A stretch of DNA of 64,000 nucleotides from Streptomyces sp. SLBN-31. Its GTDB lineage: Bacteria; Actinomycetota; Actinomycetes; Streptomycetales; Streptomycetaceae. Made by a program: the position numbers and the translations under genes. Where the stretch lies: assembly GCF_006715395.1 (NCBI RefSeq), contig NZ_VFNC01000001.1, forward strand, positions 62,001 to 126,000, written 5' to 3'. Position 1 is the stretch's first letter. Each line of letters starts with the position of its first letter. Below are positions 7,360-31,597 of the stretch, piece after piece. Below the pieces are notes generated by a model that saw only the letters and a list, made by a program, of their open reading frames with translations, did not search any database and was not told where the DNA came from.

Positions 7360-7392
7360 ACGTGATGACGGTGTGTGGTTGTAGTGGTCACT

Positions 7393-7500
7393 GGCTAGTG
7401 GCTACTGGCAAGCCGAAAGAGCCTGTTGAGGGCCCCTGGTGGCCAGTAGCGGGGTGTTCTACCGGCTAGTGGCAAGTTGGCGGTAGCCAGTAGCCGGTAG
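7393..7500. repeat. Cluster of CTAGTGGC/CTACTGGC repeats, candidate clt (Tra recognition) locus
   Basis: GGCTAGTGGC occurs at 7393-7402 and 7464-7473. GCTACTGGC occurs at 7401-7409 and inverted (GCCAGTAGC) at 7442-7450 and 7486-7494. The repeats fill the intergenic space next to the tra stop codon. Streptomyces Tra proteins recognise short repeated octamers in clt loci located near tra. That this cluster is such a site is inferred from position and repeat length. Confidence 0.5.
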
Positions 7501-7514
7501 CTTTCTGTGAGCGT

Positions 7515-15640: not shown

Positions 15641-16114
15641 ATGGGACGCATCGACTACCTTCACGACCCCGACGCCCCGCCGGCCAACTCGGTGGTGCCC
15701 TCCGTCGTGGCATTCGTGCAGAACGATGCGGGACAGGTGCTGATGATCCAGCGGTCGGACAACGGCCGTTGGGCCCTGCCCGGAGGCGGGCACGACGTCG
15801 GCGAGTCCATCAGCGACACCGTGGTGCGCGAGGTCTGCGAAGAGACGGGCGTCAAGGCCGAAGTCGTCGACATGTCCGGGATCTACACCGACCCTGGTCA
15901 CGTGATGCAGTACGACGACGGCGAGGTGCGCCAGCAGTTCAGCATCTGCTTCCGCGCGCGGCCGGTCGGCGGTGAACTCCGTACGAGCAACGAGACGACT
16001 CAGGTCCGTTGGGTCGACCCAGCGGACCTGACGACGTTGGACGTGCACCCCACGATGCGGCTCCGAATCGAGCACGCCATGGATCGGACGCGCCCGACTC
16101 CCTACATCGGCTGA
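15641..16114 (+). CDS. NUDIX hydrolase, Pif-like (AICE immunity factor candidate)
   Basis: A 157-residue NUDIX protein. The Nudix box G-x5-E-x7-REVCEETGV spans residues 49-71 with all catalytic residues present. In pSAM2 the NUDIX protein Pif blocks transfer into hyphae that already carry the element; gene order here (HTH regulator, NUDIX, GntR) suggests the same role. Substrate is unknown. It is collinear with, and about 77% identical to, the host copy at 31124-31597 (36 differences in 157 by hand). Its 3' end overlaps the convergent HD gene by 13 bp. Confidence 0.9.
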   Translation: MGRIDYLHDPDAPPANSVVPSVVAFVQNDAGQVLMIQRSDNGRWALPGGGHDVGESISDTVVREVCEETGVKAEVVDMSGIYTDPGHVMQYDDGEVRQQFSICFRARPVGGELRTSNETTQVRWVDPADLTTLDVHPTMRLRIEHAMDRTRPTPYIG

Positions 16115-16669: not shown

Positions 16670-17131
16670 CTACGAACGCTCCTCTCGCATCGGCACGGCG
16701 CGGACCGTCCGCGCCCTGCCCTGTCCGCCTCCCGCCAGCACACCGGCGGCCTCCAACTTCTCCAGTGCTTTGGTCACTGTCGGACGCGAGACCCCAAACC
16801 GATCGGCCAGCGTAGAAGCGCTGGGGAAGGCTTCCCCTACTTCAAGCGCCTCAGCCGTGATGATGTCGGCAATTCGCTCATGGAGCGGGCGCCGGTCGAC
16901 GCGCGCTCCCGCGCGTACGACGCGCCACCGCTCGCCGGGCACTGGTTCGGCCACGCCTTCCTGCCGCAGCACGCCAAACGCGCGGAGGGCGACCCCCCGC
17001 GATACCTCGTGATCACGCATGACCTCAGCCAGGGACGGGAGCTCTGTCATGTCTGGGTCGGTCGCGATCCGGGCCTTCACCGCGTCTGCCACCTTGAGGA
17101 AGGTCCCCCGAGGACTGGATTGCTGCGACAT
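16670..17131 (-). CDS. GntR-family repressor with two winged-helix domains (KorSA-like)
   Basis: A 153-residue regulator made of two GntR-type winged helices in tandem: about residues 9-67 (LAEVMRDHEVSRGVALRAFGVL) and 79-145 (LADRFGVSRPTVTKALEKLE). There is no effector-binding domain, which is unusual for GntR proteins and recalls KorSA, the pSAM2 transfer/replication repressor. ATG at 17131 fits the family; upstream codons have no family character. The HD gene follows immediately. It probably represses the rightward and leftward operons, possibly through the 14687-14711 palindrome. Confidence 0.85.
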   Translation of the reverse strand: MSQQSSPRGTFLKVADAVKARIATDPDMTELPSLAEVMRDHEVSRGVALRAFGVLRQEGVAEPVPGERWRVVRAGARVDRRPLHERIADIITAEALEVGEAFPSASTLADRFGVSRPTVTKALEKLEAAGVLAGGGQGRARTVRAVPMREERS

Positions 17132-17329
17132 CGCTCTCCTCTCTGTTCGCCGGTTCCAAGCTTCCCATGGCGTCACGGAAGTTTGATGGCCCCAACAACC
17201 CTCCACCGCACGGGGCGCTCGACCCTCTACGCACGCAGATCCTTCGCTGTACTCGTGGATTTGAAATGGCAAGCGATCTTGAGAGTTGGCGATCTACTCT
17301 TGTTTCACAGGCGTGAGACAGGATCCGGT

Positions 17330-19195
17330 ATGAGCGATCGACATGTGGCAGTCCAGGTTGACCGGCTTCGCCGACTCCTATGCGGTGATTCGGCGGGAGA
17401 CTCAGAGTCCCCCTACTTGGTGGAGATCGAAAACGGAAAGACTTTCGTCTCCGGCACCGCTGTGAGGATGCTGTCGACCTCTTACGTCCAACGCTCCTCC
17501 GGAATACTTGTTCCCGAGAGATTTGGCGCGCCGATAGCTCCGATCGACCTGATTAAGACGTATGTAACGTACGAAGAATTGGTAGGGGGGAAGTCTGAAC
17601 TTTCAGCTGTAATCGAAACCTTGAAAAGGATCAGCGTTTTTCAAGTGCTCGGCTTTACTTCGCATTGGCTTGCGCGATATTACGACCCTAGGGTCGATCA
17701 TGCAAAGCTGGATCGCGAATATGCCGAGTTGCACTTTCAGGGGCCGGTGCGCATAAAGGCGATCTCTCTTGTGGGCGAGAGCCGTGCGCTTGTTGTTCCG
17801 CAGTTGCTGCATGCGCTGGCTAAGATTGCCATCATCTACTGTTCTGCAGAGACCCAGGACGTTGTGGATGTCGGTGTGCTCGGCTGGATGCCTTTGACTC
17901 TCGGTGATCACCTAGATCAAATTGGTGAAATTCCGGATGGTGAGAACGTGGCAGTGAACGCCGATGGAACCCCGGGTGTCCTGGCTCGTCATATGATCAG
18001 CAATCAGCATCTAAATCGTCCGCTCGATGCTGCTTCCCTGATGGCTAGCTTCTCGCGCCGCTGGAGAGAGATTCCCAGATGTAATCCCCATGAGAGTCTA
18101 GGGTCATTTGAGGACTTGTATCGGGCAGAAGTGGGGATCGACCTGGATGAGTTGGAGTCCGTGGTCTTGGCTGCCTGGTCCCATGTTTCACTGCATCACA
18201 AGACCTTTATTCCAGCGTCCTACTTCCAGTCCTGTGGCCTGCCGCTGGAGCGGACAGTGGAGGTGCTGAAGAAACTGGCAACCACTGTGGATGGGTTGCG
18301 CTATTACATCGCTAACGACATGACAGAGTTGGAAGGCGGTTTGGAGTGGTCCATCGCCCCGTTCGAAAGATTCCCCATCCTTGCTGTAGATGGAGGAATC
18401 CTCGTCCTGGATCCGCGGCTACTTATGCGCAGGTCTTTCGGGTGGCTTCCTTACTTCGACGTTCTTGATGAGTTGAAGGGCGACAAGAAGAGAGCTGGGC
18501 AACTGCGAGATTACGCCGGACGAGTGAGTGAGATCTATGCGCTAGAGATCCTCGATTCGATAGCCCCGCGTCTGCGTAAGTCCATCTTCTATGAAGGTGA
18601 CCTGCGTCGGGCGTACGGAGCGAAACGGAAAGTGGTCGACGCCGCGATCGATTACGGGGACCGCTGGGTGATCGTCGACATCTCAACTCGCCAATTGATG
18701 CGGGAATCTGTGGCAGGTGTATCTGGGGACACTGTGAAGAAGGACCTGGATGCCCTGGTTAAGGCCAAGGCTGCGCAGATTCAGTCAACGATCGATGCTA
18801 TAAGGGATGACGAAAAACCTCTAACTGGGCTGCCTGGTGAGGCGCGAATTTTCTATCCGGTGGTTGTTGCTAGCGAGGGGTTTCCTGTCAACCCGATAAC
18901 TAGCTCCATGATTGAAGAAATGTTGCGTCGTGAAAACCTTCTTCAGGGTCCAGGGGTGGCTCCTGTTCAGGTTGTCGATATTGCAGAGCTAGAAATCGTG
19001 GAGGGTGTTCAAGAGCAGGGAGGCCCATCATTTGTGGATCTTCTAGAAAGGAAGGGGAAATCGGGCCTCTGGCGGGCTTCGTTGCGCGATTACATTCTTG
19101 TGGAGTTGAGGCTAGCGCCCAAGCGTCCAGAGCGGCTGGATAGGTTGTGGCAAGGTCTGTTTAATCGCGTCATCGATAAGGTCAAGCCTCGCTAA
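17330..19195 (+). CDS. Unrecognised 621-residue cargo protein, nuclease-like C-terminal motif
   Basis: Codon use is far more AT-rich than in the backbone, a sign of recent acquisition. I recognise no known family. Residues about 345-450 carry APFERFPILAVDGGILVLDP, a helical stretch, then RKVVDAAIDYGDRWVIVDIS. That layout resembles restriction-type (PD-D/E-XK) proteins in which an acidic residue, a strand and an E-x-K triad follow one another; here the triad reads D-I-S, so the lysine seems missing. The preceding 340 residues look mainly helical. It is divergent from the GntR gene and convergent with the ScoMcrA-like gene. A defence role is inferred from context only. ATG at 17330 is chosen because codons upstream are non-coding in character. 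Confidence 0.6.
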   Translation: MSDRHVAVQVDRLRRLLCGDSAGDSESPYLVEIENGKTFVSGTAVRMLSTSYVQRSSGILVPERFGAPIAPIDLIKTYVTYEELVGGKSELSAVIETLKRISVFQVLGFTSHWLARYYDPRVDHAKLDREYAELHFQGPVRIKAISLVGESRALVVPQLLHALAKIAIIYCSAETQDVVDVGVLGWMPLTLGDHLDQIGEIPDGENVAVNADGTPGVLARHMISNQHLNRPLDAASLMASFSRRWREIPRCNPHESLGSFEDLYRAEVGIDLDELESVVLAAWSHVSLHHKTFIPASYFQSCGLPLERTVEVLKKLATTVDGLRYYIANDMTELEGGLEWSIAPFERFPILAVDGGILVLDPRLLMRRSFGWLPYFDVLDELKGDKKRAGQLRDYAGRVSEIYALEILDSIAPRLRKSIFYEGDLRRAYGAKRKVVDAAIDYGDRWVIVDISTRQLMRESVAGVSGDTVKKDLDALVKAKAAQIQSTIDAIRDDEKPLTGLPGEARIFYPVVVASEGFPVNPITSSMIEEMLRRENLLQGPGVAPVQVVDIAELEIVEGVQEQGGPSFVDLLERKGKSGLWRASLRDYILVELRLAPKRPERLDRLWQGLFNRVIDKVKPR

Positions 19196-19252
19196 GCGAG
19201 CAGCGGCTGCATCGCCGATCCGCGTTCCGCTTTCTTAGGGCTGTTCCTGTGA

Positions 19253-19289
19253 CGTGCCGGCGCTTACGCCACGAGGAGACGCCGGCACG
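19253..19289. terminator. Hairpin between two convergent cargo genes
   Basis: A 10-bp perfect stem (19253-19262 with 19280-19289) with a 17-base loop lies between the stops of the 621-residue gene and the ScoMcrA-like gene. It is a plausible bidirectional terminator. Confidence 0.6.
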
Positions 19290-19295
19290 CGCAAA

Positions 19296-20972
19296 TCAAT
19301 CGAGCATCGCTTCATGAAGGCGTCGTGCCGTAGCAGCGAGCAGACGCCGGAGCCTCTCCTTGTTTTCGCCGTACGTCTTGAGGGCGTGGCAGTTGGGACA
19401 CAAGGCGATCATGTTCCAAGGGACATCGGGTCCCTGTTTGGCGAGGTCTTTGACGTGGTCGACCTGCAAGATTGGCAGGCCGGCTGTGGTCAGCTCGGTG
19501 GGGTGGCCTGCACATTCAGGGCTTTCGCACCTGCCGCGGCAGCGCTTGATGACGGCAGCTCGCGCGCTGGGGTCGCGGACGTACTTGTCGGCCAGTGTCG
19601 GTTTCTTCATCCCGCGGCGCCGCTCGGCGTTCGCCTCGGCCTTCTGCGCCAGGCGCCGATAGGCATCCTGGTCGCTCTCCCCGGTGGTGGGGGCTTCGAG
19701 GTCGAGGTCGCTGGGACGGTAGTCGCCGGTGTCGTCGTGGAGCTCCCCTGTATCGGCGTCCAGCGCTTCGAGCACTTCGGCAGGCCAGGTCTCCCGCTCT
19801 GGGGAGGGAACAGGCGCCAGCACCCAGAGGAACTCGCGGCGGGGCAGCTTGTCTTCTCCAACGCCCCACCGCAGTCGGCGTTGCACGATCACGGCCCAGG
19901 TTTCGAAGCCGAACTGTCCTTGGAACGGCTTGTGCCAGTAGCGCAGCGGGCGGCCGGCCGTCTGATGTTCGGCCATGAGCTCGTTGCCGTCAGTGAGCTT
20001 TTGGTCGCCAGACAGACCGTCGCCCACGTAGGCGATCCAGTTGGTGTCCGGGATGCGCCCATCGGCGTAAGGCCCCTTGTCGTCCGAGAAGACGCTCAGG
20101 ATGCCATCGGCGAGGCAGCCGATCCCTGCCATCTTCTGACCGCCATAGGCCCGCCAAATGGTGTCCCGATCCTTGAACGTTTCCCCAAGCACCGGGCGCA
20201 GAGCATCCGGCCACCTGCCGGCGAGCAGCTCGTGGAGGCCGAAGTCTTCGAGCAAGCCCGCTGGAAGGGGATGGAAGTAGCGCAGGATCAGTCCGGCAGC
20301 CGCGGATGCAGCGGCATCCGGGTGCGAGCGGAGCAGGTTGTAGTCATCCTCGCGCAGACCGCCAAGGGGATTGACCTCATTCAAAGACTCCAGTGTCGGG
20401 CGCCGCCCACGGCTGGTCAGGTTGAGGTCCTGCCCCTGCTCGATGGTCCACAGCTCATCGCGAACAAGGGCCCAGAACGGGTAACGGGCCCCGTCCACGC
20501 CGTCTTCCACCTGGCCGTACTTCACCAGCAGAGGTGCCACAGCATCACGTGTGGCTGCCCATGGCTGCATGCGGGGTGCGCCGGCCAGAGCCTGGCCGAT
20601 AGCCCAGAGCAGCAGAACGGGACGGTGCAGAGCGGGCCCCGTCGCACGTCGAGCCGGCCGGACGTCTCCCACGCGCCTGTGAAAGGTCTTCGGGGGCGCC
20701 ACCACGGTGAAGCCCTCCCTACGGAGCCACGCCACTGCATGCTTGAGACCCCCGCTGAGCCCCGGAGAGGAGGGCTTGAGCGCTACGCCGAAGTCATACA
20801 GGTGGGCGACTCCGGCTATGGCCTTCGAGTCGTACAGGTTGCCTTCGTGTTCCAGGAAATACGCCGCCGCGGCGTGGAAGCCGTACGTTGCCCTAAACGC
20901 TTCCGGGCCGAGCCGGTCGTGCTCCGCAATCGCCTGCAGGATGCCTGCACGAGTGATCTCCGAAGGTGCCAT
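19296..20972 (-). CDS. ScoMcrA-like type IV restriction endonuclease
   Basis: A 558-residue modification-dependent nuclease. Domains in order: N-terminal head (about 1-92, YFLEHEGNLYDSKAIAGVAH), sulfur-binding domain (112-255, with HR at 116-117 and YPFW at 164-167), SRA/YDG-like domain (about 262-400, YVGDGLSGDQ), and HNH nuclease (about 480-545, VDHVKDL and ALCPNCH). ScoMcrA of S. coelicolor cuts phosphorothioated and 5-methylcytosine DNA. As I recall, its key sulfur-pocket residues are numbered H116, R117, Y164 and P165; they fall at the same positions here. This supports the ATG at 20972 over an upstream ATG at 21020. It should exclude modified foreign DNA. Confidence 0.92.
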   Translation of the reverse strand: MAPSEITRAGILQAIAEHDRLGPEAFRATYGFHAAAAYFLEHEGNLYDSKAIAGVAHLYDFGVALKPSSPGLSGGLKHAVAWLRREGFTVVAPPKTFHRRVGDVRPARRATGPALHRPVLLLWAIGQALAGAPRMQPWAATRDAVAPLLVKYGQVEDGVDGARYPFWALVRDELWTIEQGQDLNLTSRGRRPTLESLNEVNPLGGLREDDYNLLRSHPDAAASAAAGLILRYFHPLPAGLLEDFGLHELLAGRWPDALRPVLGETFKDRDTIWRAYGGQKMAGIGCLADGILSVFSDDKGPYADGRIPDTNWIAYVGDGLSGDQKLTDGNELMAEHQTAGRPLRYWHKPFQGQFGFETWAVIVQRRLRWGVGEDKLPRREFLWVLAPVPSPERETWPAEVLEALDADTGELHDDTGDYRPSDLDLEAPTTGESDQDAYRRLAQKAEANAERRRGMKKPTLADKYVRDPSARAAVIKRCRGRCESPECAGHPTELTTAGLPILQVDHVKDLAKQGPDVPWNMIALCPNCHALKTYGENKERLRRLLAATARRLHEAMLD

Positions 20973-22231
20973 GGGCGACACCGTAGAGCAGGGCACTGAC
21001 AGCGGAGGTGGCGCTGCCATGCGCTGGGGTCAGTTGGTGTGGGGGAGTTCGCCAGCATTCGCCACCCTTGAACCAGCACTTGCGCCACTGGCGCGCCAGT
21101 TAACTTCTTGTGGGTTCGATGCCTGTCTCCTCGAGCGCCCGCCTGAACGCAGGCGGGCCCAACTCTGTTGGGATCACTGAGAGATGGGAGATCGAATCAG
21201 ATGGAGCGATCGACACGGCGAGCACGGTGCCGCAGGCGCAGTCAGTTACCGGACTGGGTCCAGCTGGTGGCCTTGTTCCTGACTGCGGTCACTGCCATCG
21301 CGGGGTGCATCGAGCACTTTGTGTGAGGCATCAGAGGCGTTCCGGACGGTTGGTTGGGCGGCAGGCGAGCCCGACCGGTGCATAGTCGGCCGGACCCGCC
21401 CGTAACCCGCATGTGAGCCTGGCTCCGGGGAGCTGCCCGGAGCCAGGCATCCATGCGTCGTAGGTGCCTTTCGGCTCCATGACGAGGAAACCGCAAGTCA
21501 CCAATACCTTCAAGCATCGGAACCAGCTTCATGATCCAAAACCGTGGCGAAGACCCGTAGTGAAGGCATGGCGCGAAGGGTGGCGTTCACCTTCAGTGCC
21601 TGGTCAGAGCCCTGCGGGGGTGGCGAAAGCTGGCGAATCGTGTCGGCCGACAGAACGGGTTGGAGGGCCGCGTGGTGCATGATCCCCCGGGTGCCCCCCC
21701 AGGAACGCGGCGTTGCTCTTCTTGCCAGGTGAGGCAGGCTGGGAGCGGTCCTCAGTAAGTCTGCCGATGCACTTCGACAGAACGTCTTGCTGAGAGTGGG
21801 GGCGTCACTGATCGCGGCTAACAAACCCGGGCCGTCTGGTGCAGGTCCACCGGGCGCATGTTGATTTACGCCGGGCGATTGGGCAGTGGCCGAGCAGCTC
21901 GGAGAACACGGCTGGTTGTGCCGGGATTGGGATACCCACTGATGGCCGTCTGCAGCCAGGACAGACCTCGCGGGGACTGCTTCGGGGCCGCCTGAGGTGT
22001 CTCGGGACGAGCCGCGGCCAGCCTCCGGCGGATGGCGACGGCTCCTCGATGGCGGTCAGTGCCTCCAAGCGCCGCCCCAGATCTCCCAGTCGGACGGAGA
22101 GGCGGCTGCATGGGCGCTGCTCGCGCTGCACCGCGAGCAGCACGAGTCTGGCGGTGAGCCAGTAAGGCATCCGGGTGCACGTTTCTCGGAACTTGACGTG
22201 GCGGACCGAAGCATCTGCTAGAGGAGTGAGC
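20973..22231. other. 1.26-kb cargo spacer without a convincing gene
   Basis: Several frames of 60-230 codons cross this stretch on both strands, but none has a recognisable domain, good ribosome-binding site and codon bias together. The sequence is patchy in composition, consistent with decayed genes at a cargo junction. A 41-codon frame with one membrane helix (21201-21326) is the only candidate I keep. The right end must hold the promoter of the Trypco2 gene. Confidence 0.5.
21201..21326 (+). CDS. Possible 41-residue single-helix membrane peptide
   Basis: ATG at 21201 opens a frame with a strongly basic start (MERSTRRARCRRRSQ) and one hydrophobic helix (WVQLVALFLTAVTAIAGCI). A GGGAG lies upstream, somewhat far away. 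The basic-then-hydrophobic arrangement is typical of small membrane peptides or toxins. It could be real or the remains of a larger gene. Confidence 0.35.
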   Translation: MERSTRRARCRRRSQLPDWVQLVALFLTAVTAIAGCIEHFV

Positions 22232-22561
22232 ATGAAGGAAACTAGCGTGGGTTTGGCGGACGCAGTCGCCGCTCTGCGGCGGGAACTATTGAACGCAATG
22301 CAGGAGGGCGATAGAGCCCCGATGCGATTTCGGCTAGCGCCAATTGAGCTGTCGATGCAGGTAGCGATCTCCAAGGAAGCCAACGGAAATATCGGCTGGC
22401 ATGTGCTTGGCTTGGGCGGGAAGTATAGCTCGGCGACGACACAGACACTGACGCTGCGGTTAGAGCCACTCTGGCAGGCAAAGGACGGCTCATACATCGG
22501 CGACTTCGCGATTGCAGATCAAGGAACAGAGAAACCTCGAGTGGGACCAGGCGCCGAATAG
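22232..22561 (+). CDS. Trypco2 (trypsin-co-occurring domain 2) protein
   Basis: A 109-residue protein. A helix (LADAVAALRRELLNAMQEGD) is followed by strands MRFRLAPIELSMQVAISKE, then a loop and a final strand TLTLRLEPLW, matching the Trypco2 pattern. This family is known only from its frequent neighbourhood with trypsin-like proteases in predicted conflict systems; the molecular role is unknown. ATG at 22232 has GAGGAG five bases upstream. It is 51 bp from the trypsin-NB-ARC gene and on the same strand, so the two form a unit. It could be a substrate, chaperone or brake for the protease. Confidence 0.82.
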   Translation: MKETSVGLADAVAALRRELLNAMQEGDRAPMRFRLAPIELSMQVAISKEANGNIGWHVLGLGGKYSSATTQTLTLRLEPLWQAKDGSYIGDFAIADQGTEKPRVGPGAE

Positions 22562-22612
22562 CCGTATAATATATATGTGCACCCTTTCCTTCGTATCGGC
22601 TAGGTGGTGTAG

Positions 22613-25600
22613 ATGGCGACTAAGGCTTGGAGTGGCATCCCGTCTCATCAGGTAGTGGCTGTCGTCTGCGATCTCGATACAGGGCTGGTGCAGGTCGGTT
22701 CCGGCTACATGATCACGGGCCACCACGTGCTGACCGCGCTGCACTGCACGTTGGACAAGAAGACTGGCCGGGAACCCCGATCAATCAGTGTGATCCGCCG
22801 AACTGATGGCGCACGAGTAACAGCTACACGAATCGCTACAGAAATGGATGTGGCTGTCCTTAATATTTCCGAAAGTGCCGAGTGGGTGACAGATAAAGCG
22901 ACGGAACCTCCCACGTTCGGGGTAGTAAGCCGTGCTTACGCTGGTGAGTTGCATAATTGCGCAGCCGTGGGGTTCCCCCTGTGGCAAATGGATCCGCAGG
23001 ATCAGCAGCGGAACGCGGCGGAGATGCACGGCACGATCCGGGTAACCGAGGACGTCGAATCGGGTCTCCTAGTGATGAGGGATCCGCTGCTCAGCGACGT
23101 CAGTGTCCCCGATGCTGTACCCGAAGGACACGGATCGCCCTGGGGCGGACTGTCAGGTGCGCTGGTGTTTCACGATGGCATCGCCCTCGGAGTGGTCATT
23201 GAGCATCATCCGCGCCAGGGCCGATCAGCGGTCCGGATCATGCCGATCGAACGGCTCGTAGCCGTTCGGGACAGAATTGGCGAGCGGCAAAACTCCATCG
23301 CGTCCGTATTGGGAATAGGTTCTATAGATGAGTTGCGGCGAGTCGAAGTTGGTCTCCCGCGTAAAGGTGTCATTCAGCGCAAAATCTGGAGGGTTCCTTT
23401 TCCCGTGGATCCGGACTTTGTCGGCCGCGACGAAGAATTGGCCAAGCTCGCGGCTTCCCTCGTCCCCGGGGCTCGAACTGTAGTCACCCAGACTGTGTCT
23501 GGCCTCGGTGGGATTGGCAAAACCCAGTTGGCTGCCCACGTGGCCCATTCTGTCGTGAACAGGTTCCACATCATCTGGTGGGTAGAGGCACAGCAGCGCT
23601 TGACGATTGATGCCTCTCTTCGTGCACTGGGAAAGGCACTGGGCCTTCGGGAAGATTCGACAAGCGCGGATGTCTTGTCGGAGCTTTCCACCCTTGAGTC
23701 GTCAGTCAATTGGATGCTGATATACGACAACGCTGAGTCGCCGGCATCCCTCCACGGCATGCTGCCCACTCGTGGTTCCGGAGCCGTCCTCATCACCACC
23801 CGTTGCCAGGATTGGCCAACTTGGGCGTCAGTCACTGACCTCGGCCCTCTCGATGAAGAAGCGGCGGCGATACTGCTGTCTAAAGCATCCGGGAACGAGA
23901 GAGACGTTGCCCGAAGAATTGCAAATAAATTCGGCCGTCTCCCCTTGGCTCTAGCGCAAGCAGCAGCACAGATTCGCGCAGGGATCTCCTTGACCGAATA
24001 TGAAGAGATACTGGGGTCGCGATTCCTTGATGCGGTCAGAGCCAAGGCATCTCTTCCTGGCTACGATCGTCCTGTACTCGATGTCGTCGTTATGGCGCGC
24101 GATGCTGCCGCTGCCGCTGCCGGAAGTGCTCAACGGCTTCTAGTGCTGTTTGCGTTACTGGATCCCGATAGAGTTGAAGACTGGCTATTGCAGAGCATCC
24201 CGGCAGATGATCCTCTCTCCGATCCGTTTGACCGTGGTGCCGCTCTCGCAGCACTCAGACGTTTTTCCCTGGTAACTGAGATTGAAGGCGAGTCGAGAGC
24301 GTACGCTAACCACAGACTCGTACAGGAGATTGTGCGGCAGACCTGCGAGGGTGATCTGGAAGATCTGTCGAAACTGGCTCTGCGTACACTCTGTAATTCA
24401 ATTACAAGTGGTGACTGGAGATATCGCGAACAACGCACGTGGAGAGCCTCCAATCATCTGCAACACTTCTTGGATATTGCTGAGCTTTTTCATCCCCGCG
24501 AAACCGTGGCGGCTCTCATACGTCTCGCCGATCGATCAAATAGCGGCGTAGCCATGCGCGGCAATTCTGTGTGGGCTGCGCGAGCGGCACTCCAGATCGT
24601 AGAACGAAATTCTGGATTCTCGGACGATGACGTCGTAATTGCACTCCTCACTGTCCACAAAGCCGAACAGGGTGACAATGGACGCCGGCGCAACAGGCCA
24701 GATACTACCGCGATCCGCCGCGCCTTGGCCGTGCAGCGGAAAAAGGATCCAAATGGTTCCCAAGCTGTTGCGGCAATCGAGTTGGAACTGGCACGTACGT
24801 TGGCACGCAAATACTTTTGGTGGGTCGATTTTGATTTCATCGAGGCCGATCTTCTCGAGGCTGCGAATCTCGCTGGGTCGTCCTTGACGATACTGCAACG
24901 CGACAACAATCGTTTGGCAACTGCATCGGCTCAAGCACTTCACGCAGGCACGGTTGGACATCTGCGTTGCGTTGATGAGGCGGTGGCAGAATATGGTGAC
25001 GCGGTCGCTCTGGCAGAAGAAGACGATTCCGTGTGGTGGGGACGGGTGGAGGCCGGGTATGCGCTCTCAAAGTTTGGGAGAATTGCTGACGCTCGCAGGA
25101 TGGTAACCCCGCTCCTTGATCGCATCGAAGACGATTCCGAGGATTTTATCGAGCGCTCTCGGTATGGTGAATCATTGGACCGGATCTATTCATGCTGCCT
25201 CTGGGAACAGCGTGACTGGCGAGAATACTTGACCTACAAGGAAGCGAGATACGACCGTGCTGAGCAGAGAAACCGGACAAGAGGGATTGGCGATTCTTCG
25301 ATAAGCCGCTACTATGCGTTGACTTCGTTGCGTAGCGCATACGATGCTCTGGGGTACTTGACAAGGGTTGACGAGTGCGACCAGGAAATTGCGTCTACTG
25401 CGATCGCCAACATGGTGAATGGACTTAGGCGCTATGAGATAGAGGTTGCTGGGGGCCAGCCAACTGCTGATGAGATAGTAGAAATGCTGGAGCGAGTGCC
25501 CAGAGGTAAAGATCTGCCGGTGGGGGATGATTGGCTGTATAGCTTGCAGGCGTTTAGAGATAGACCTGATCTCAGAGTGCGGATTGCTCGCGTTAAGCGA

Positions 25601-26353
25601 ATCAATAAAGAGTACGCGACCCGCCAACCTTCATCTTCACAGGTTTCCCAGGATCTCCTATTTTATGCTCTCGCGCAAGAGGCGCGTGAACTTGCGGAGA
25701 TTGACGAGGATGCAGCCGTATCAGTTATTGGACGAGCGCGATCAATGGTAGATCGCGGGGACGTCAAAATTCCCGTGTCGGAACTTGCAAAAGCGTATCT
25801 CGATATGGCTTCGGTGCCACGACCAAGTTCGATTGCCTTCATGGAAGAGGCGGTTTCGCTGCTGACGTCGGGCAATTGGTACGATAGTACCCATTATGTT
25901 CACTTCGGTTGCACTGGTCCGGGCCTACTCAGTCGTGCAGCTGACAGAATTGCTGTGCTCAAGCATGGGTTCACGAAGGCCAAGAACCTTGAGCTTGAGG
26001 CGGTGGCTCTTGAAGAGAATGTGCATGGTCGAATCTCTCCGGGGGTTTCTATGCATCTGTTCAACGCTGGCCAGTATGCCGTAAGCGCTGGCGAGATCAT
26101 GGGCCAAATCGGGGCGATTTCCTTGCTGGAGGAATCCCTTGACATAGCTTCCATCTGTTTCGGCCGAGAGGTTCCTCGCTGGGCCAGCCATGCTGTTGAA
26201 TTGGCGGCAGTGCTGCCTGATATCGAGCAGGCGTGGGCTAAAGCGCTACTGCAGCGTTCTCTGGCGATCTTCTCTGGATTCTATGGGGCAGATCATCATT
26301 TGGTCAGGGACTGTAAAATCAAGCTGACCGGCCTCACTGTCGGCCACGCATAG
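22613..26353 (+). CDS. Trypsin-like protease fused to NB-ARC STAND ATPase and TPR array
   Basis: A 1246-residue protein. Residues 12-215 are a trypsin-like peptidase with His44 (TALHC), Asp79 (EMDVAVL) and Ser180 (GLSGA), so the triad is complete. The NB-ARC domain follows: Walker A GLGGIGKT at 295-302, Walker B WMLIYDN near 365-371, ITTR after it, and GRLPLAL near 448. About 700 residues of helical TPR-like repeats end with LLQRSLAIFSGFYGADHH. This is the NLR plan: effector, switch and sensor. It probably senses a phage or plasmid cue and unleashes proteolysis. A TATAAT box at 22565-22570 lies upstream. Composition is AT-rich compared with the backbone. Confidence 0.9.
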   Translation: MATKAWSGIPSHQVVAVVCDLDTGLVQVGSGYMITGHHVLTALHCTLDKKTGREPRSISVIRRTDGARVTATRIATEMDVAVLNISESAEWVTDKATEPPTFGVVSRAYAGELHNCAAVGFPLWQMDPQDQQRNAAEMHGTIRVTEDVESGLLVMRDPLLSDVSVPDAVPEGHGSPWGGLSGALVFHDGIALGVVIEHHPRQGRSAVRIMPIERLVAVRDRIGERQNSIASVLGIGSIDELRRVEVGLPRKGVIQRKIWRVPFPVDPDFVGRDEELAKLAASLVPGARTVVTQTVSGLGGIGKTQLAAHVAHSVVNRFHIIWWVEAQQRLTIDASLRALGKALGLREDSTSADVLSELSTLESSVNWMLIYDNAESPASLHGMLPTRGSGAVLITTRCQDWPTWASVTDLGPLDEEAAAILLSKASGNERDVARRIANKFGRLPLALAQAAAQIRAGISLTEYEEILGSRFLDAVRAKASLPGYDRPVLDVVVMARDAAAAAAGSAQRLLVLFALLDPDRVEDWLLQSIPADDPLSDPFDRGAALAALRRFSLVTEIEGESRAYANHRLVQEIVRQTCEGDLEDLSKLALRTLCNSITSGDWRYREQRTWRASNHLQHFLDIAELFHPRETVAALIRLADRSNSGVAMRGNSVWAARAALQIVERNSGFSDDDVVIALLTVHKAEQGDNGRRRNRPDTTAIRRALAVQRKKDPNGSQAVAAIELELARTLARKYFWWVDFDFIEADLLEAANLAGSSLTILQRDNNRLATASAQALHAGTVGHLRCVDEAVAEYGDAVALAEEDDSVWWGRVEAGYALSKFGRIADARRMVTPLLDRIEDDSEDFIERSRYGESLDRIYSCCLWEQRDWREYLTYKEARYDRAEQRNRTRGIGDSSISRYYALTSLRSAYDALGYLTRVDECDQEIASTAIANMVNGLRRYEIEVAGGQPTADEIVEMLERVPRGKDLPVGDDWLYSLQAFRDRPDLRVRIARVKRINKEYATRQPSSSQVSQDLLFYALAQEARELAEIDEDAAVSVIGRARSMVDRGDVKIPVSELAKAYLDMASVPRPSSIAFMEEAVSLLTSGNWYDSTHYVHFGCTGPGLLSRAADRIAVLKHGFTKAKNLELEAVALEENVHGRISPGVSMHLFNAGQYAVSAGEIMGQIGAISLLEESLDIASICFGREVPRWASHAVELAAVLPDIEQAWAKALLQRSLAIFSGFYGADHHLVRDCKIKLTGLTVGHA

Positions 26354-26507
26354 GAGTCCCTGATTCCCCCAGGCGTTCCCCGGGAGGGTTAGGCGCCGGA
26401 AGAACCGCAGGCCAAGAGCGGTGGGCGGAGCTCGATGTAAATCCGCCAGCTAAGTCATCTTTGACAGGAGGCCAGCATGTCAATGTGGTCCGGGCCTGGC
26501 GTCGGTC

Positions 26508-29500
26508 TCACGCGAGAAGGGTGACGGTCAACGAATCGTCCAGGGCGTCCAGGCCCCGCACACGGTCTTGGGCGATCGTGATGATGACGTCCCGCAGGGA
26601 GGTCAGGCCGGCCAGCGGCGTGAGGTCGATGTCCCCTTCCGCCGTCATGTCCCCGCTCAACTGACAGATCGCCAGTCCGGGGAAGGCGTACGGTAGCCGT
26701 CGCACCGCCGCCTGGACGACTCGGTCACCGCCTCCTCCGGACAGCGCCAGATGAGAGACACTGCCGAGGACCGCGTCCGACGGCAGTGCCTCCAAGGACA
26801 CGGCGGTCGTGCTGAGCTCAGTGAGACAGGACAGGGAGCGGATCTCGGCCCATTCCTCGGCGGAGGTCGGGCACGACGGGCTGTTGAGGGTGAGGCTCTT
26901 CATTTCTGGGAAGTTGCCAATGCCCCGCATGCCTCCCTCGGGGCGCATGCTGCTCTCCACCTTCAGTACGTTGAGTGGGGCCGACCTCGGCAGGTCCGTC
27001 AGGGACCAGCGCAGATCCGCAGGGCCGGTGAGCGTGAGCGTCGTCAGTTCCGGCAGCTGGGACAACGGGCTCAGGTCCAGGTCGGACCGGGTGGCGGAGA
27101 TGTCTAGATAGCGGATCGGGAGTCTGGTTAGGGCCGAAAGATCGGTCAGATGAGGGCAGTCGTCGATGATGAGGGTACGCAGCCGCGTCTGCCCGGTGAG
27201 GAAGTTGAGATCGGTGATCTCGTCGCTGGACACGGACAGAGACGCGAACGGTTGCTCGGCGGAGTACATGGCCAGGGCTTCCAGGGAGACCCCGGTCCTG
27301 ACGTCCAGGTCGTCCGGCCGCACCTTGAGACGGATCAGCTGACGCAACTGCTCGTCCGACTGGATCGTGCAGTTCAGCTGGGTCATGTTCAGTCGTGCGA
27401 CGACCTCCTCGGCGTACCGCGCCGTGTCGAAGCGTGACCAGGCCCACAGGAGCTGAAGGCGGACCAGCACGGAAGAGTGGTCGGCAAAACGAGAGAGGAA
27501 GGCGATGGCGGCGTCGGACTTGATGTGTGAGGCGGCGATGACCACGTTGAAGGCGGCCACATCGTCGGTCAGTTCATCGGGACCGGGCAGGAGGTGCAGG
27601 ATCAGCGGGCCGACTTCGGCGAGGGCTTGGGCCTCCGCTTCGCTTCCCGGCGGGATTAGGGTTGCGGTGCGCTGTTCCACGGCCTCACGAACGGCGGGGT
27701 CGAGGGCTGTGGCGTGCTCCAGACAGGCGGCGGCGAGTAGGTAGAACCTGGCCTGCACCCGCTGCTCCACGGCCCGGTCCCCCTGAGCCATCAGCTCTTC
27801 GAAGATCGTCACGCGTTCACGGGCGCGGGCGAGGGCGACTGCCATACGGATGACGTCCTCCCACTGGTCGTCATCCGCGTGCTCGCTGAGTAGACCGAAG
27901 TCACCCTCTTCGAGGGCCGCCCGGGCTCCGAGGAAATCCTGGAAGGTGCGGTGGATGAAGTCCACGGAGTCGAGAGAAGGCTCGCGGAGCAGGCCGCTGC
28001 GCTGCAGGAAGTGATCGAACACGGCTGACGCGTCACCCAGCGCGGCCACTTCGGGCACCGCGGGAAGGGCCCGGTCGATGATGGACTCGGCACGCGCCCG
28101 GTCCATCTCTGTGCGGCCGTTTTTGATCAGCCAGTACGCGAGCCGCTGGAGGACGTCGAGCTGGGGGTCGTCGGCCAGTTCTGGACCCTCCATGTCCCGC
28201 TCCCGGTCGCGGCGGCTGAGAAGCATCGAGAGCGCGGCCTCGTAGAGGTCCTTGCGGCCGTGGGGGAGGTAACCCCGGCGGTCACGATGTAGAGCACAGG
28301 TCAGTCCGCACATCAGAGGATTGGTGGCCAGCCGGGCCAGCCCCGGTTCAGTGCGGACAGCGGTGAGCAGCTGCGCCTCGTACCTCTCCAGGTCGGTGTC
28401 GTCCTCGCCGCCGACGCGCGCCGCGCGGTGCCATCGCCGGATGAACGTGGCGATGCTGGCGGAGTCCATCGCGGCAAGACTCAGCTCGGTGAAATCCTCT
28501 TCGGCGAGCCAATCCCGGTCCACGGCCGCAGGACGGGATGTGATCAGCCAGCGGTTGTCACCGTCGTAGGTGTCGACGAGGTCCCGCAGCCACCTCCGGG
28601 CCCGCTCGCGCTCGCGGGCCGGTATCTCGTCGACGCCGTCGACGAGGAGGAGACCGCGCCCGGCGAGCAGCACCCTGTGCTCCCAGCCGTCGGGCTGGGA
28701 GCCGTCGAGGGGGCAGCTGGTGGCGGCCAGGAACCGCTTGGGGGAGGGGAGATCCCTGCCGTTGCGTGTCAAGGTACGCAGAGGGAGGACGAAGGGGACG
28801 CGGTCGTACAAGTAGTCAGCGCCGTCGGGTAGCTCCTGGCGGGCGGCAGTGACCGCGAGCCACTGGACCAGCGTCGTCTTGCCCGACCCGGCCTCGCCGC
28901 GCAGCAGCACACGGTGGCTGGTGGCGAGGGCGCGGTCTGCGGGCTGAGGCGTGAACAGGCCCGAGGGCTGGCTATTCAGTCCACGGAGGAGCGTCGGAAG
29001 GAGAGGGCTGCTCTCCCAACTGCGGCCGACTAGCTCGTGCGCCTGGCGGTTTCTCGTCTTCTCCCGCAATGACCACAGCTCCTCCGAGGCGGAGGTCACC
29101 AGCGCGTTCCTTCCCCCGTCGTCCGTCGCGGACCGGACGGACGACGTACGCAGCAGGATGGCTACACGGTCCTCGGAGGTCGCGGCCGTGTCGGCGAGGA
29201 GCTGATCGAGGATCAGCTGGTGGTTCCACGACGGTGACGCCTGGAGGCTGAGATAGGCCACGTCTAGCGGCCACCGCCGTGGCGAGTTGTTGAGGTCGAT
29301 GCCGTAGATGGTCAGCTTGCCGTGCTTCTTCGCCACGTGGGCGAGATACCGCTGCTCGAAGGCGGCGTCCTCACCGCCGGGGAGCGGGTTGCGGCGGATC
29401 AGTTCGTCAATCTTGACAACGAGTTCGCCGAGGCTGTGGGCCTGCTCGACCAGAGCGTGGGCGACGAACGTTGAGCGTTGCGTGAAGAAGTGCAGGATGT

Positions 29501-29936
29501 GCAGGCAGGCCGTGTCAAGCAGACTCTCGTAGAAGTACGTGCCGTCGGCCGACAGATGGCGTTCGGGGGAGCCGCTCGCACGCCGCAGGGAACGGGCGAA
29601 CTCCCGGTGACCGAGGCGGACCGCTTCGAGGTCGGTGAGCGTGATGTCGCCGAGGGCGCGCAGTGTAACGGCGAGGGCGTCGGTAACGGCCTGCCGTTCG
29701 TCAGCCGCGACGGGCCGTTCGCCGGCCTGCAGGGCCTTTCGGACGAGCCGGTCGGCCAGACGGCCGACATCGGCCTCGGTGAGGGTACGCTTCTCGCCCC
29801 TGAAGGACACGTACGCCGAAATGCGGACGGGCTTGGCGACCAGTCCCGCCCCGGGGCCCTCGTTGACGAAGAGCTTTTTGATGAGCGGGCCGATGGCGGC
29901 CGAAGCCAGCCGCGCGCCGATGGCCGTAGGTTCCAA
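26508..29936 (-). CDS. NACHT-LRR (bacterial NLR-like) protein
   Basis: A 1142-residue protein. The N-terminal region (about 1-330) starts with a helix EPTAIGARLASAAIGPLIKK, like the helical N-terminal domains found in bacterial NACHT proteins. The NACHT NTPase has Walker A GEAGSGKT at about 347-354, Walker B LLLVDGVDE near 430-438 and LITSRP after it. Leucine-rich repeats occupy roughly the last 250 residues (LPIRYLDIS, LPELTTLTLTG). Bacterial NACHT proteins protect against phages, and LRRs are likely the sensing part. The start is probably TTG at 29936 behind GGGGGC; codons upstream lack family character. It is convergent with the NB-ARC gene and is the last gene before attR. Confidence 0.88.
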   Translation of the reverse strand: MEPTAIGARLASAAIGPLIKKLFVNEGPGAGLVAKPVRISAYVSFRGEKRTLTEADVGRLADRLVRKALQAGERPVAADERQAVTDALAVTLRALGDITLTDLEAVRLGHREFARSLRRASGSPERHLSADGTYFYESLLDTACLHILHFFTQRSTFVAHALVEQAHSLGELVVKIDELIRRNPLPGGEDAAFEQRYLAHVAKKHGKLTIYGIDLNNSPRRWPLDVAYLSLQASPSWNHQLILDQLLADTAATSEDRVAILLRTSSVRSATDDGGRNALVTSASEELWSLREKTRNRQAHELVGRSWESSPLLPTLLRGLNSQPSGLFTPQPADRALATSHRVLLRGEAGSGKTTLVQWLAVTAARQELPDGADYLYDRVPFVLPLRTLTRNGRDLPSPKRFLAATSCPLDGSQPDGWEHRVLLAGRGLLLVDGVDEIPARERERARRWLRDLVDTYDGDNRWLITSRPAAVDRDWLAEEDFTELSLAAMDSASIATFIRRWHRAARVGGEDDTDLERYEAQLLTAVRTEPGLARLATNPLMCGLTCALHRDRRGYLPHGRKDLYEAALSMLLSRRDRERDMEGPELADDPQLDVLQRLAYWLIKNGRTEMDRARAESIIDRALPAVPEVAALGDASAVFDHFLQRSGLLREPSLDSVDFIHRTFQDFLGARAALEEGDFGLLSEHADDDQWEDVIRMAVALARARERVTIFEELMAQGDRAVEQRVQARFYLLAAACLEHATALDPAVREAVEQRTATLIPPGSEAEAQALAEVGPLILHLLPGPDELTDDVAAFNVVIAASHIKSDAAIAFLSRFADHSSVLVRLQLLWAWSRFDTARYAEEVVARLNMTQLNCTIQSDEQLRQLIRLKVRPDDLDVRTGVSLEALAMYSAEQPFASLSVSSDEITDLNFLTGQTRLRTLIIDDCPHLTDLSALTRLPIRYLDISATRSDLDLSPLSQLPELTTLTLTGPADLRWSLTDLPRSAPLNVLKVESSMRPEGGMRGIGNFPEMKSLTLNSPSCPTSAEEWAEIRSLSCLTELSTTAVSLEALPSDAVLGSVSHLALSGGGGDRVVQAAVRRLPYAFPGLAICQLSGDMTAEGDIDLTPLAGLTSLRDVIITIAQDRVRGLDALDDSLTVTLLA

Positions 29937-30323
29937 TTCTGCCCCCTGGAACTGTGATGACCCGTGTGCTGCGATCTTACGGTGCCCGGGCGGTCCGCAC
30001 CGGCCCTGCGCTGATGATCTGCGGCTCTCAGTGGAGCCGGGGATCTCGATGGCCGGGCAGCGTTCCATGGCTATGTCCGGCCCTTTCGGAGCGGCACTCA
30101 GCTTCGCGTCTGAGTAGCAGCGCATGGGCTTTCCGCGGTCGGCACGGCCGCCCACTGCGGCCGTCGCATGACTCGATCGTCTCGGGGACTCCAGGGGGCA
30201 GATCCAAGTGAAGCGGCCGGGAACTTCAAGATCAGGACGAGACGTGGACGAGATTCGGCTGTCCGCCTTGGAGGCTATGCAAAGTGCCAGGTCAGAATGG
30301 CTATAGCTGAGGGATCTTGAGGG
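29937..30323. other. NACHT promoter side and right terminal region of the AICE
   Basis: About 390 bp between the NACHT start and attR. No gene is convincing; short frames lack domains. The NACHT promoter must lie here. Near 30236-30255 the sequence AGACGTGGACGAGATT nearly repeats AGACGTGGACGGGATT near attL (2087-2102), a 15 of 16 match that may be a recombination-protein site at both ends. Confidence 0.5.
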
Positions 30324-31123: not shown

Positions 31124-31597
31124 ATGGGACGCATCGACTACCTGCACGACCCCGACGCCCCACCGGCGACCTCGGTGGTGCCCGCCGCCGTGGCGCTCGT
31201 CCAAGACGACACGGGACGCGTCCTCATGGTCCGTCGCTCCGACAACGGCCGCTGGGCCCTGCCCGGGGGCGGCCACGACGTGGGGGAGTCCATCAGCGAC
31301 ACCGTGGTCCGCGAGGTCCGGGAGGAGACCGGCATCGAGGTGGAGGTCGTCGGACTGACGGGGATCTACACCGACCCGGGGCACGTGATGCGCTACGACG
31401 ACGGCGAGGTCCGCCAGCAGTTCAGCATCTGCTTCCGGGCGCGCCCGACGGCGGGCCAACTCCGTACGAGCCCCGAAACCCCCCGCGTCCGCTGGGTCCC
31501 GCCGGCCGAACTCCCCGAACTCGACATCCATCCGAGCATGCGCCTGCGGATCGGGCACGCACTGGACCCCGCGCGCACCTCCCCCCACATCGGCTGA
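31124..31597 (+). CDS. NUDIX hydrolase, host paralogue of the AICE Pif-like gene
   Basis: A 157-residue NUDIX protein with the full Nudix box (residues 49-71, REVREETGI). It aligns without gaps to the AICE protein at 15641-16114: the first 15 residues are identical and about 77% match overall. It stands alone, without the HTH, HD or GntR partners found in the element, 750 bp outside attR. It may be a housekeeping nucleotide hydrolase from which the AICE gene derives, or the remnant of an earlier element at this site. AGGAGG lies seven bases upstream of the ATG. Confidence 0.9.
   Translation: MGRIDYLHDPDAPPATSVVPAAVALVQDDTGRVLMVRRSDNGRWALPGGGHDVGESISDTVVREVREETGIEVEVVGLTGIYTDPGHVMRYDDGEVRQQFSICFRARPTAGQLRTSPETPRVRWVPPAELPELDIHPSMRLRIGHALDPARTSPHIG

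What the first reader, a model, noticed from the sequence alone, without database searches (positions are those of the whole stretch)
22232..26353. Trypco2 protein paired with a trypsin-NB-ARC-TPR STAND protease
The protease has an intact His44-Asp79-Ser180 triad, a complete NB-ARC switch and a long TPR sensor. The 109-residue partner is a Trypco2 domain, known mainly from genomic association with trypsin-like proteases. The gap is only 51 bp. A plausible model: oligomerisation of NB-ARC on sensing a trigger activates the protease, with Trypco2 as substrate, adaptor or brake. The function of Trypco2 is unknown, so this pair is a good test case.
Basis: partly seen in the sequence, partly recalled or inferred. 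Interest (0 to 1): 0.85.

Follow-up and report, generated by a model that had tools for sequence, protein, structure and literature searches.

The report
Trypco2 partner of NLR-like bacterial protease
Two neighbouring Streptomyces genes encode an immune-receptor-like protein with a trypsin-type cutting domain and a small partner protein of unknown function; in related genes the partner usually stays with the cutting domain while the rest of the protein changes, which makes the pair a good place to find out what the partner does.

Summary
The pair is real: Trypco2 (22232-22561) and a 1246-aa protein (22613-26353) with trypsin-like, NB-ARC and DUF7779 domains and a long C-terminus. Corrections: the catalytic Ser is 181 and the Walker lysine 303; Trypsin_2 is below Pfam's cut-off; TPRs are only sub-threshold. 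It is not a one-off: 78 of 121 genomes of the genus carry Trypco2. Of 121 Trypco2 loci examined, 111 have a trypsin gene directly adjacent; 5 more are VMAP-type clusters. This trypsin subclass was found in 25 of 30 Trypco2-positive and 0 of 20 Trypco2-negative genomes. The Trypco2+trypsin unit sits in front of NACHT, NB-ARC, nSTAND5, iSTAND, VMAP or Sel1 modules, or beside kinase and vWA genes; L155 keeps both (56% and 52% identity) on another C-terminus. So Trypco2 most likely acts on the trypsin domain rather than the sensor; I favour a regulatory subunit (brake or assembly factor) over a substrate. Against: two Trypco2 fusions without trypsin nearby (to CHAT and to TPRs), and only a weak evolutionary preference for trypsin over the C-terminus. 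Binding was not shown; both AlphaFold models were poor. The association was published in 2020; the sensor-independent cassette is the addition.

The parts
22222..22226 (+). AGGAG, likely ribosome-binding site of the Trypco2 gene
   Evidence: sequence
22232..22561 (+). Trypco2 protein, 109 aa; domain at residues 6-79, C-terminal tail conserved within its own clade
   Evidence: Pfam PF19631 1.1e-20; 37-sequence alignment
22613..26353 (+). 1246-aa protein: trypsin-like, NB-ARC, DUF7779, long C-terminus
22649..23272 (+). trypsin-like (S1, PA clan) domain, about residues 13-220; begins almost at the N-terminus, so little room for a propeptide
   Evidence: alignment A2; PDB match of its profile; Trypsin_2 sub-threshold
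22742..22744 (+). catalytic His44
   Evidence: aligned column: His in 88 of 88 downstream partners
22847..22849 (+). catalytic Asp79
   Evidence: Asp in 87 of 88, one gap
23153..23155 (+). catalytic Ser181 (reader: 180)
   Evidence: Ser in 84 of 88, four gaps; numbering
23438..23953 (+). NB-ARC domain, residues 276-447; Walker A GLGGIGKT 297-304, Walker B region 367-374
   Evidence: Pfam PF00931; motif positions; nearest solved chain by sequence NRC1, E 0.0018
23519..23521 (+). Walker A Lys303 (reader: 301)
24119..24346 (+). DUF7779 (residues 503-578), with NHRLVQ at 566 (likeness to the plant NLR MHD motif is recalled)
   Evidence: Pfam PF25000 2.1e-8; motif position
24410..26353 (+). C-terminal putative sensor, residues 600-1246; TPR-like only below threshold
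   Evidence: TPR_12 E 0.015; FxSxx_TPR 199.7 bits, cut-off 300

Best explanation
A two-gene, NLR-type protease switch. The C-terminus senses a trigger, NB-ARC exchanges nucleotide and the protein assembles (inferred from the STAND class), and the N-terminal trypsin domain is the effector. That domain starts at the very N-terminus and has Leu, not Asp, just before the catalytic Ser (the chymotrypsin Asp194 site, numbering recalled), so it is probably not kept off as a classical zymogen. Trypco2 is the partner of the trypsin domain, not of the sensor: most likely a bound regulatory subunit that holds the domain inactive or shapes its assembly until oligomerisation. Shown by sequence: the linkage, examples of cassette exchange, the conserved triad. 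Inferred: direct binding (about 0.6), the brake role (about 0.4), phage defence (about 0.7).
For: Adjacency: 88 of 121 loci have trypsin directly downstream on the same strand, 20 divergent, 3 convergent or in reversed order; of 87 downstream pairs with an estimated gap, 73 lie between -17 and +60 bp, 19 of them at -4 (counted from the list). Genome level: strong trypsin-subclass hits in 25 of 30 Trypco2-positive genomes and none at E 1e-14 in 20 of the 43 Trypco2-negative ones; Fisher p 2e-9. Sensor independence: the unit occurs before NACHT, nSTAND5, NB-ARC, iSTAND, VMAP and Sel1 modules and beside kinase and vWA genes. Natural swaps: L155 keeps Trypco2 (56%) and trypsin (52%) with another C-terminus; L146 shares its C-terminus with one family while its trypsin and Trypco2 both match another better. 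Trypco1: 3 of 18 places in 8 genomes lie next to weakly matching trypsins, none next to the 22 strong ones. Active site conserved.
Against: No binding evidence: Trypco2 alone gave pLDDT 64, pTM 0.45, the tethered Trypco2-trypsin model pLDDT 61.5, pTM 0.50. Over 80 loci, Trypco2 similarity follows trypsin only slightly better than the C-terminus (standardised weights 0.46 and 0.39; 80% of subsamples favour trypsin), with a counter-case (L068: C-terminus 36-38% and Trypco2 51-52% alike, trypsin only 31-34%). 7 of 50 strong trypsin places have no Trypco2 close by, and 4 of 121 Trypco2 loci have no trypsin in the stretch. One of those four, L143, is a TPR-Trypco2 fusion in a genome without the trypsin subclass, and in Arthrobacter Trypco2 is fused to a CHAT protease. 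Gene order varies, which speaks against a strict 'inhibitor first' rule.
Confidence: 0.5

Rival explanations
1. Trypco2 is the substrate or pro-effector: the activated trypsin domain cuts it, as Avs1b cuts the Avs1a pro-nuclease and HamA cuts HamM, and the product does the work.
For: Same gene place (smaller gene just upstream of a trypsin-STAND gene) as the nuclease-protease pairs of PMC12799240 (outline and passages read); no flanking ORF family recurs in more than 17 of the 88 downstream loci, so no other common effector gene is apparent; the C-terminal tail is conserved within the window's clade (D91, F92, G105, P106 at least 90% in 37 sequences) and poorly ordered in a weak model.
Against: About 100 aa with no other Pfam hit (membrane segments were not predicted); by eye no tail position is conserved across the 121 members; also present with VMAP and iSTAND proteins, whose systems by the 2020 description have effectors of their own; fused to a CHAT protease in one genome.
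Confidence: 0.2
2. Trypco2 is an adaptor that clusters or recruits protease effectors, like the effector-associated domains.
For: PMC10907252 calls Trypco1 and Trypco2 adapter domains (passages); Trypco2 is fused to CHAT in Arthrobacter hankyongi and to TPRs in L143; in the VMAP-type cluster of the window's own genome Trypco2 is kept although the trypsin is a separate trypsin-EAD2 protein.
Against: The HMM found a second Trypco2 in only 1 of 121 loci, so no nearby partner for homotypic pairing; no Trypco2-trypsin fusion in the genus loci; in STAND fusions the protease is already joined to the sensor.
Confidence: 0.22
3. The pair is a developmental or stress-signalling protease of a filamentous bacterium rather than an anti-phage system.
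For: Enrichment in the genus (78 of 121) against 4 of 296 genomes in a phylum-wide sample, 3 of the 4 being of the same genus; at 17 loci the pair lies beside a clpC-like gene (named by eye), so some versions look like a fixed part of the chromosome.
Against: Window neighbours look like defence genes (GapS1-like below cut-off, type IV restriction enzyme, NNH1-NACHT); Trypco2 on 14 plasmid records; low G+C of the pair (0.56-0.58 against 0.67 for the window); variable C-termini.
Confidence: 0.1

Closest known systems
Trypco2 with trypsin-VMAP in vWA-MoxR ternary systems (Kaur et al. 2020, PMC7159879, passages read)
   Same: Trypco2 gene beside a gene for a protein with an N-terminal trypsin domain
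   Different: Here the trypsin is fused to NB-ARC-DUF7779; no VMAP, MoxR or vWA domain in the eight window proteins scanned, the pair included
AVAST type 1 (Avs1a nuclease, Avs1b trypsin-STAND; PMC12799240, outline and passages read)
   Same: Trypsin at the N-terminus of a large STAND-type protein, smaller gene upstream; weak Avs1b match over residues 26-90
   Different: Avs1b score 20.7 against a cut-off of 1500; partner is Trypco2, not an MBL-fold nuclease
FxSxx-COOH system TPR protein and the VMAP-linked AP-ATPase-TPR
   Same: NB-ARC plus DUF7779 engine: 33% identity over 343 columns to the NB-ARC protein of the same genome's VMAP-type cluster
   Different: Below the FxSxx_TPR cut-off (199.7 against 300); carries a trypsin domain; no FxSxx component among the eight window proteins scanned (short peptides were not sought)
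CARD-NLR systems (L. enzymogenes; LypABC of Caulobacter, PMC13236601, passages read)
   Same: Trypsin-like protease plus NLR-like ATPase with TPR-like repeats
   Different: There the CARD-trypsin protein and the NLR-like protein are separate; here one polypeptide that begins with trypsin, plus Trypco2

Membership tests
Trypco2 (PF19631) | Pfam profile match over the curated cut-off | tested here: met
   74.1 bits against 24.2, profile 1-78 of 78
Trypco2 (PF19631) | gene neighbour encodes a trypsin-like peptidase | tested here: met
   next gene 51 bp downstream; same in 88 of 121 loci, 111 of 121 adjacent in any orientation
Trypsin-like serine peptidase (S1, PA clan) | His-Asp-Ser triad in order | tested here: met
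   H44, D79, S181; aligned columns conserved in the partner set
Trypsin-like serine peptidase (S1, PA clan) | Pfam Trypsin_2 over cut-off | tested here: not met
   24.1 against 27.6 for the window protein; 14 of 15 relatives scanned are over
STAND NTPase, NB-ARC/AP-ATPase class | NB-ARC profile and P-loop | tested here: met
   25.7 against 23.5; GLGGIGKT 297-304
STAND NTPase, NB-ARC/AP-ATPase class | C-terminal superstructure-forming repeats | tested here: inconclusive
   only TPR_12 at E 0.015 and below-cut-off FxSxx_TPR
AVAST type 1 | Avs1b equivalog score | tested here: not met
   20.7 against 1500
AVAST type 1 | upstream MBL-fold pro-nuclease | tested here: not met
   upstream gene is Trypco2; no MBL domain in the eight window proteins scanned between 16.6 and 31.6 kb
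vWA-MoxR VMAP ternary system | VMAP, MoxR and vWA components | tested here: not met
   none in the eight window proteins scanned; the same genome has an EAD2-VMAP gene beside its other Trypco2
FxSxx-COOH TPR protein | NCBIfam equivalog cut-off | tested here: not met
   199.7 against 300
Anti-phage defence system | protects against phage | not testable with these tools
   no experiment; context only

The most novel reading that the evidence does not exclude
Trypco2 plus its trypsin subclass is a plug-in protease cassette that bacteria bolt onto many unrelated immune switches (NB-ARC, NACHT, nSTAND5, iSTAND, VMAP, EAD2-recruited, Sel1, kinase/vWA). Trypco2 is the trans-acting regulatory subunit that makes an always-mature trypsin domain safe inside the cell; Trypco1 does the same for another trypsin subclass, and in Arthrobacter Trypco2 has been joined in cis to a caspase-like (CHAT) protease.
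Probability: 0.38. Interest if true: 0.72.

Novelty: new variant of a known kind. Interest (0 to 1): 0.52.

Why it matters
Trypco1 and Trypco2 were named in 2020 for an association only; I found no experimental work on them (searches, in the held open-access library only). In Streptomyces the commonest setting is a gene pair, simpler than the ternary systems in which they were named, so the role of Trypco2 can be tested with two genes. A cytosolic protease without a propeptide needs some other control; if Trypco2 is that control, it would be a reusable safety part of bacterial NLR-like immunity.

Tried and rejected
Structure: Trypco2 alone with 41 sequences (helix 8-28, strands 38-48, 54-58, 69-77; pLDDT 64) had no PDB match with E below 0.9. 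A Trypco2-trypsin tether with 72 rows (only 3 of them covering trypsin) gave an N-terminal beta-barrel at about pLDDT 90 but a poor second barrel and pTM 0.50; its best PDB matches were trypsin-fold proteases, so no interface is claimed. A first tether alignment (A5) laid a trypsin-only row onto Trypco2 and was discarded. Mirror-tree and regression tests: linkage to trypsin only slightly stronger than to the C-terminus, reported as weak. Phage origin: no Trypco2 relative in the phage records, viral contigs or PHROGs. Promoter and terminator scan: nothing clearly above shuffles. My codon-based gene caller missed the Trypco2 gene in 9 of 121 loci, the window's included, and was replaced by ORF and HMM analysis. 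Considered and rejected: AVAST type 1, VMAP ternary and FxSxx_TPR membership (scores below cut-off or components missing). Solitary trypsins explained by Trypco1: rejected, as no Trypco1 lies beside them.
Full report
What is there. Pfam gives Trypco2 at 74.1 bits (cut-off 24.2). For the large protein it gives NB-ARC (25.7, cut-off 23.5) and DUF7779 (34.7, cut-off 27) over the cut-offs, and Trypsin_2 (24.1, cut-off 27.6) below it. The C-terminal 647 residues carry only a sub-threshold TPR_12 match (E 0.015), so 'TPR sensor' is a likely reading through the related FxSxx_TPR family (199.7 bits, cut-off 300), not a shown fact.

How common it is. In 121 genomes of the genus, 78 have Trypco2; in 296 genomes drawn from the phylum, 4 have it, 3 of them of the same genus. 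I fetched 120 of the 125 listed places and analysed them with the window's own (121 loci). With HMMs built from the window's Trypco2 and trypsin domain on these same loci, trypsin lies directly downstream on the same strand in 88 loci and divergently in 20. Three of four 'far' loci are also gene neighbours: L045 and L147 convergent, L102 with the trypsin gene first. That makes 111 of 121. Five more (L035, L062, L071, L105, L107) have an NB-ARC protein 3-4 kb off and no trypsin in the stretch. In two of them, L035 (the window genome's own second copy) and L071, I scanned the neighbouring gene and found EAD2-VMAP. In four of the five genomes a longer stretch showed a trypsin gene 8-9 kb off; the one scanned, in the window's own genome, is a trypsin-EAD2 protein. 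In the fifth, L107, the contig ends. L076 has a trypsin 2.2 kb away; L057, L131, L143 and L151 have none in the stretch. Only 3 trypsin ORFs besides the nearest one per locus were found in 1.65 Mb. A P-loop motif was found in 76 of 88 downstream partners and in 0 of 20 divergent ones. For 87 downstream pairs a gap could be estimated: 73 lie between -17 and +60 bp, 3 are larger, and 11 are large negative values that I take for wrong start choices. The HMMs were trained on these loci, but Pfam, run on 15 partner proteins, found Trypsin_2 in all 15, 14 over the cut-off. I opened 6 of the 14 plasmid hits: in 5 the next gene is annotated as a trypsin-like or serine protease, and in the sixth it is a TPR protein with a weak Trypsin_2 match (E 0.0012).

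The reverse test. A profile of 44 of the 88 trypsin domains (A2) separates two sets in 30 Trypco2-positive genomes: 50 places with at least 120 bits and the rest below 63. By coordinates 39 of the 50 are next to a Trypco2 gene, 4 lie in the VMAP-type clusters just named, and 7 have none close by (two of these are one gene in both chromosome ends). The strong hits occur in 25 of the 30 genomes; of the five without, four have a divergent-type locus (L066, L085, L109, L115) and one is the genome of L143. In 20 of the 43 Trypco2-negative genomes (those that one search listed by handle) nothing reached E 1e-14. In both searches only part of the first-look candidates was scored (109 and 150 per genome). 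Fisher p is 2e-9, and gene counts per genome correlate (rho 0.79). The 30 genomes were chosen because they had Trypco2, so the 39 of 50 holds for such genomes only. Solitary trypsin proteins were thus seen only where another Trypco2 is present, which would fit action in trans, but the sample is small.

Which part Trypco2 belongs to. Representatives show the same front end on NACHT (L048, L104), nSTAND5 (L091 and L140 below the cut-off; plasmid L163 over it), NB-ARC-TPR (L038), iSTAND (Azospirillum plasmid L161), VMAP (Methylosinus plasmid L162) and Sel1 proteins (L158 over the cut-off, L157 at it). Two members of the divergent class were scanned: a PknG-like kinase with TPRs is joined in one reading frame in L043 and is the next gene in L083, where a vWA gene follows. 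Of the six loci, L155 is closest to the window: it keeps Trypco2 (56%) and trypsin (52% over 217 residues) on another C-terminus, though a 39-residue stretch of the C-termini aligns at E 0.015. Closer Trypco2 proteins exist (up to 77%, Kitasatospora), but I did not hold their DNA. L146 has its C-terminus from one family (35% over about 920 residues; trypsin 29-32%, Trypco2 38-39%) while its trypsin and Trypco2 resemble another more (L056: 58% and 53%). L068 speaks the other way. Over 80 loci the standardised weights for Trypco2 similarity are 0.46 (trypsin) and 0.39 (C-terminus), and trypsin is higher in 80% of subsamples: a tendency, not proof. Within its own genome the NB-ARC-DUF7779 part is 33% identical over 343 columns to the NB-ARC protein of the VMAP-type cluster, so the window protein looks like the Trypco2-trypsin cassette on an AP-ATPase engine.

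Trypco2 without this trypsin. Arthrobacter hankyongi has Trypco2 and CHAT in one 730-aa protein, which NCBI also lists as one protein. L143 has Trypco2 at the end of a 381-aa ORF with TPRs, in a genome without the trypsin subclass. Both show that Trypco2 is not tied to trypsin alone. In L131 Trypco2 stands alone beside a clpC-like gene where other genomes have the pair, as if the protease had been lost (clpC named by eye).

Trypco1 (PF19493) was sought in 8 genomes: 18 places, three of them 84-126 bp from a weakly matching trypsin (G000:C2, G003:C2, G011:C4) and none next to the 22 strong ones. The genes beside the other 15 were not read. This hints that each Trypco family goes with its own trypsin subclass, which would explain the mutual exclusion reported in 2020.

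Mechanism. The triad is conserved in every downstream partner that aligns there (His 88 of 88, Asp 87 of 88, Ser 84 of 88, the rest gaps); among the 20 divergent ones it is His 20, Asp 19 and one Glu, Ser 19 and one gap. So proteolysis is under selection. The residue before Ser is Met or Leu in 68 of 88; in chymotrypsin-type zymogens it is Asp194 (recalled), and the trypsin domain starts almost at residue 1, so classical zymogen control is unlikely (inference). Control must come from assembly, from Trypco2, or both. Because Trypco2 mostly goes with trypsin whatever the switch, and is kept with VMAP and iSTAND proteins, I think a regulatory subunit of the trypsin domain most likely. Brake against assembly factor is open. 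The Avs1a/HamM precedent (PMC12799240) keeps the substrate reading alive.

Structure work was poor and is not used as evidence.

Print. 'Trypco2' occurs in 2 papers of the held library: PMC7159879, which named it for VMAP systems, and PMC10907252, which calls it an adapter (passages of both read). 'trypsin-co-occurring' occurs in one. A search for NB-ARC, trypsin-like, Streptomyces and STAND gave one unrelated paper (passages). Supplementary tables were not open to me, so the 2020 authors may list trypsin-STAND-Trypco2 pairs there.

Noticed in passing
window 16880-30155: Small defence-like island around the pair: GapS1-like protein (16880-19195 +, 37.8 bits, below cut-off 320), type IV methyl-directed restriction enzyme (19296-21020 -, PADLOC mREase_IV 1168.9 bits), the pair, and an NNH1-NACHT protein with weak LRR matches (26508-30155 -).
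   Followed up: partly
window 15641-16114 and 31124-31597: Two similar NUDIX-like genes, both beginning MGRIDYLHDPDAPPA, flank the island on the same strand (the second is NUDIX by Pfam; the first by likeness); the island may have been inserted or duplicated there.
   Followed up: no
window 22232-26353: Pair is G+C-poor (0.58 and 0.56 against 0.67 for the window; third-position G+C 0.64 and 0.57), which may point to recent acquisition; the GapS1-like gene is similar (0.56).
   Followed up: partly
L160 6001-8193: Arthrobacter hankyongi: Trypco2 fused to a CHAT (caspase-like) peptidase in one 730-aa protein, followed by a 460-aa ORF with an alpha/beta-hydrolase look (by eye).
   Followed up: partly
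L143 6134-7279: TPR-Trypco2 fusion (381 aa; TPR_12 37 bits, Trypco2 72.8 bits), followed at 7391-8011 by an ORF with an MBL-hydrolase-like THEHADH motif (by eye); no trypsin within 7 kb.
   Followed up: partly
L083 7344-12410 (and L043): Divergent Trypco2 class, two members scanned: trypsin with a PknG-like kinase and TPRs (same ORF or next gene), and in L083 a vWA gene; no P-loop motif in the trypsin protein in 20 of 20 divergent loci; possibly a further switch type.
   Followed up: partly
L080, L131 and other loci: A recurrent downstream neighbour at 17 loci is a clpC-like gene in reverse orientation (named by eye); in L131 Trypco2 sits beside such a gene without a protease.
   Followed up: no
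L165 (window genome C1:2316000-2331000): Second Trypco2 of the same genome: Trypco2, EAD2-VMAP, NB-ARC-DUF7779-TPR protein and a trypsin-EAD2 protein 8.5 kb away.
   Followed up: partly
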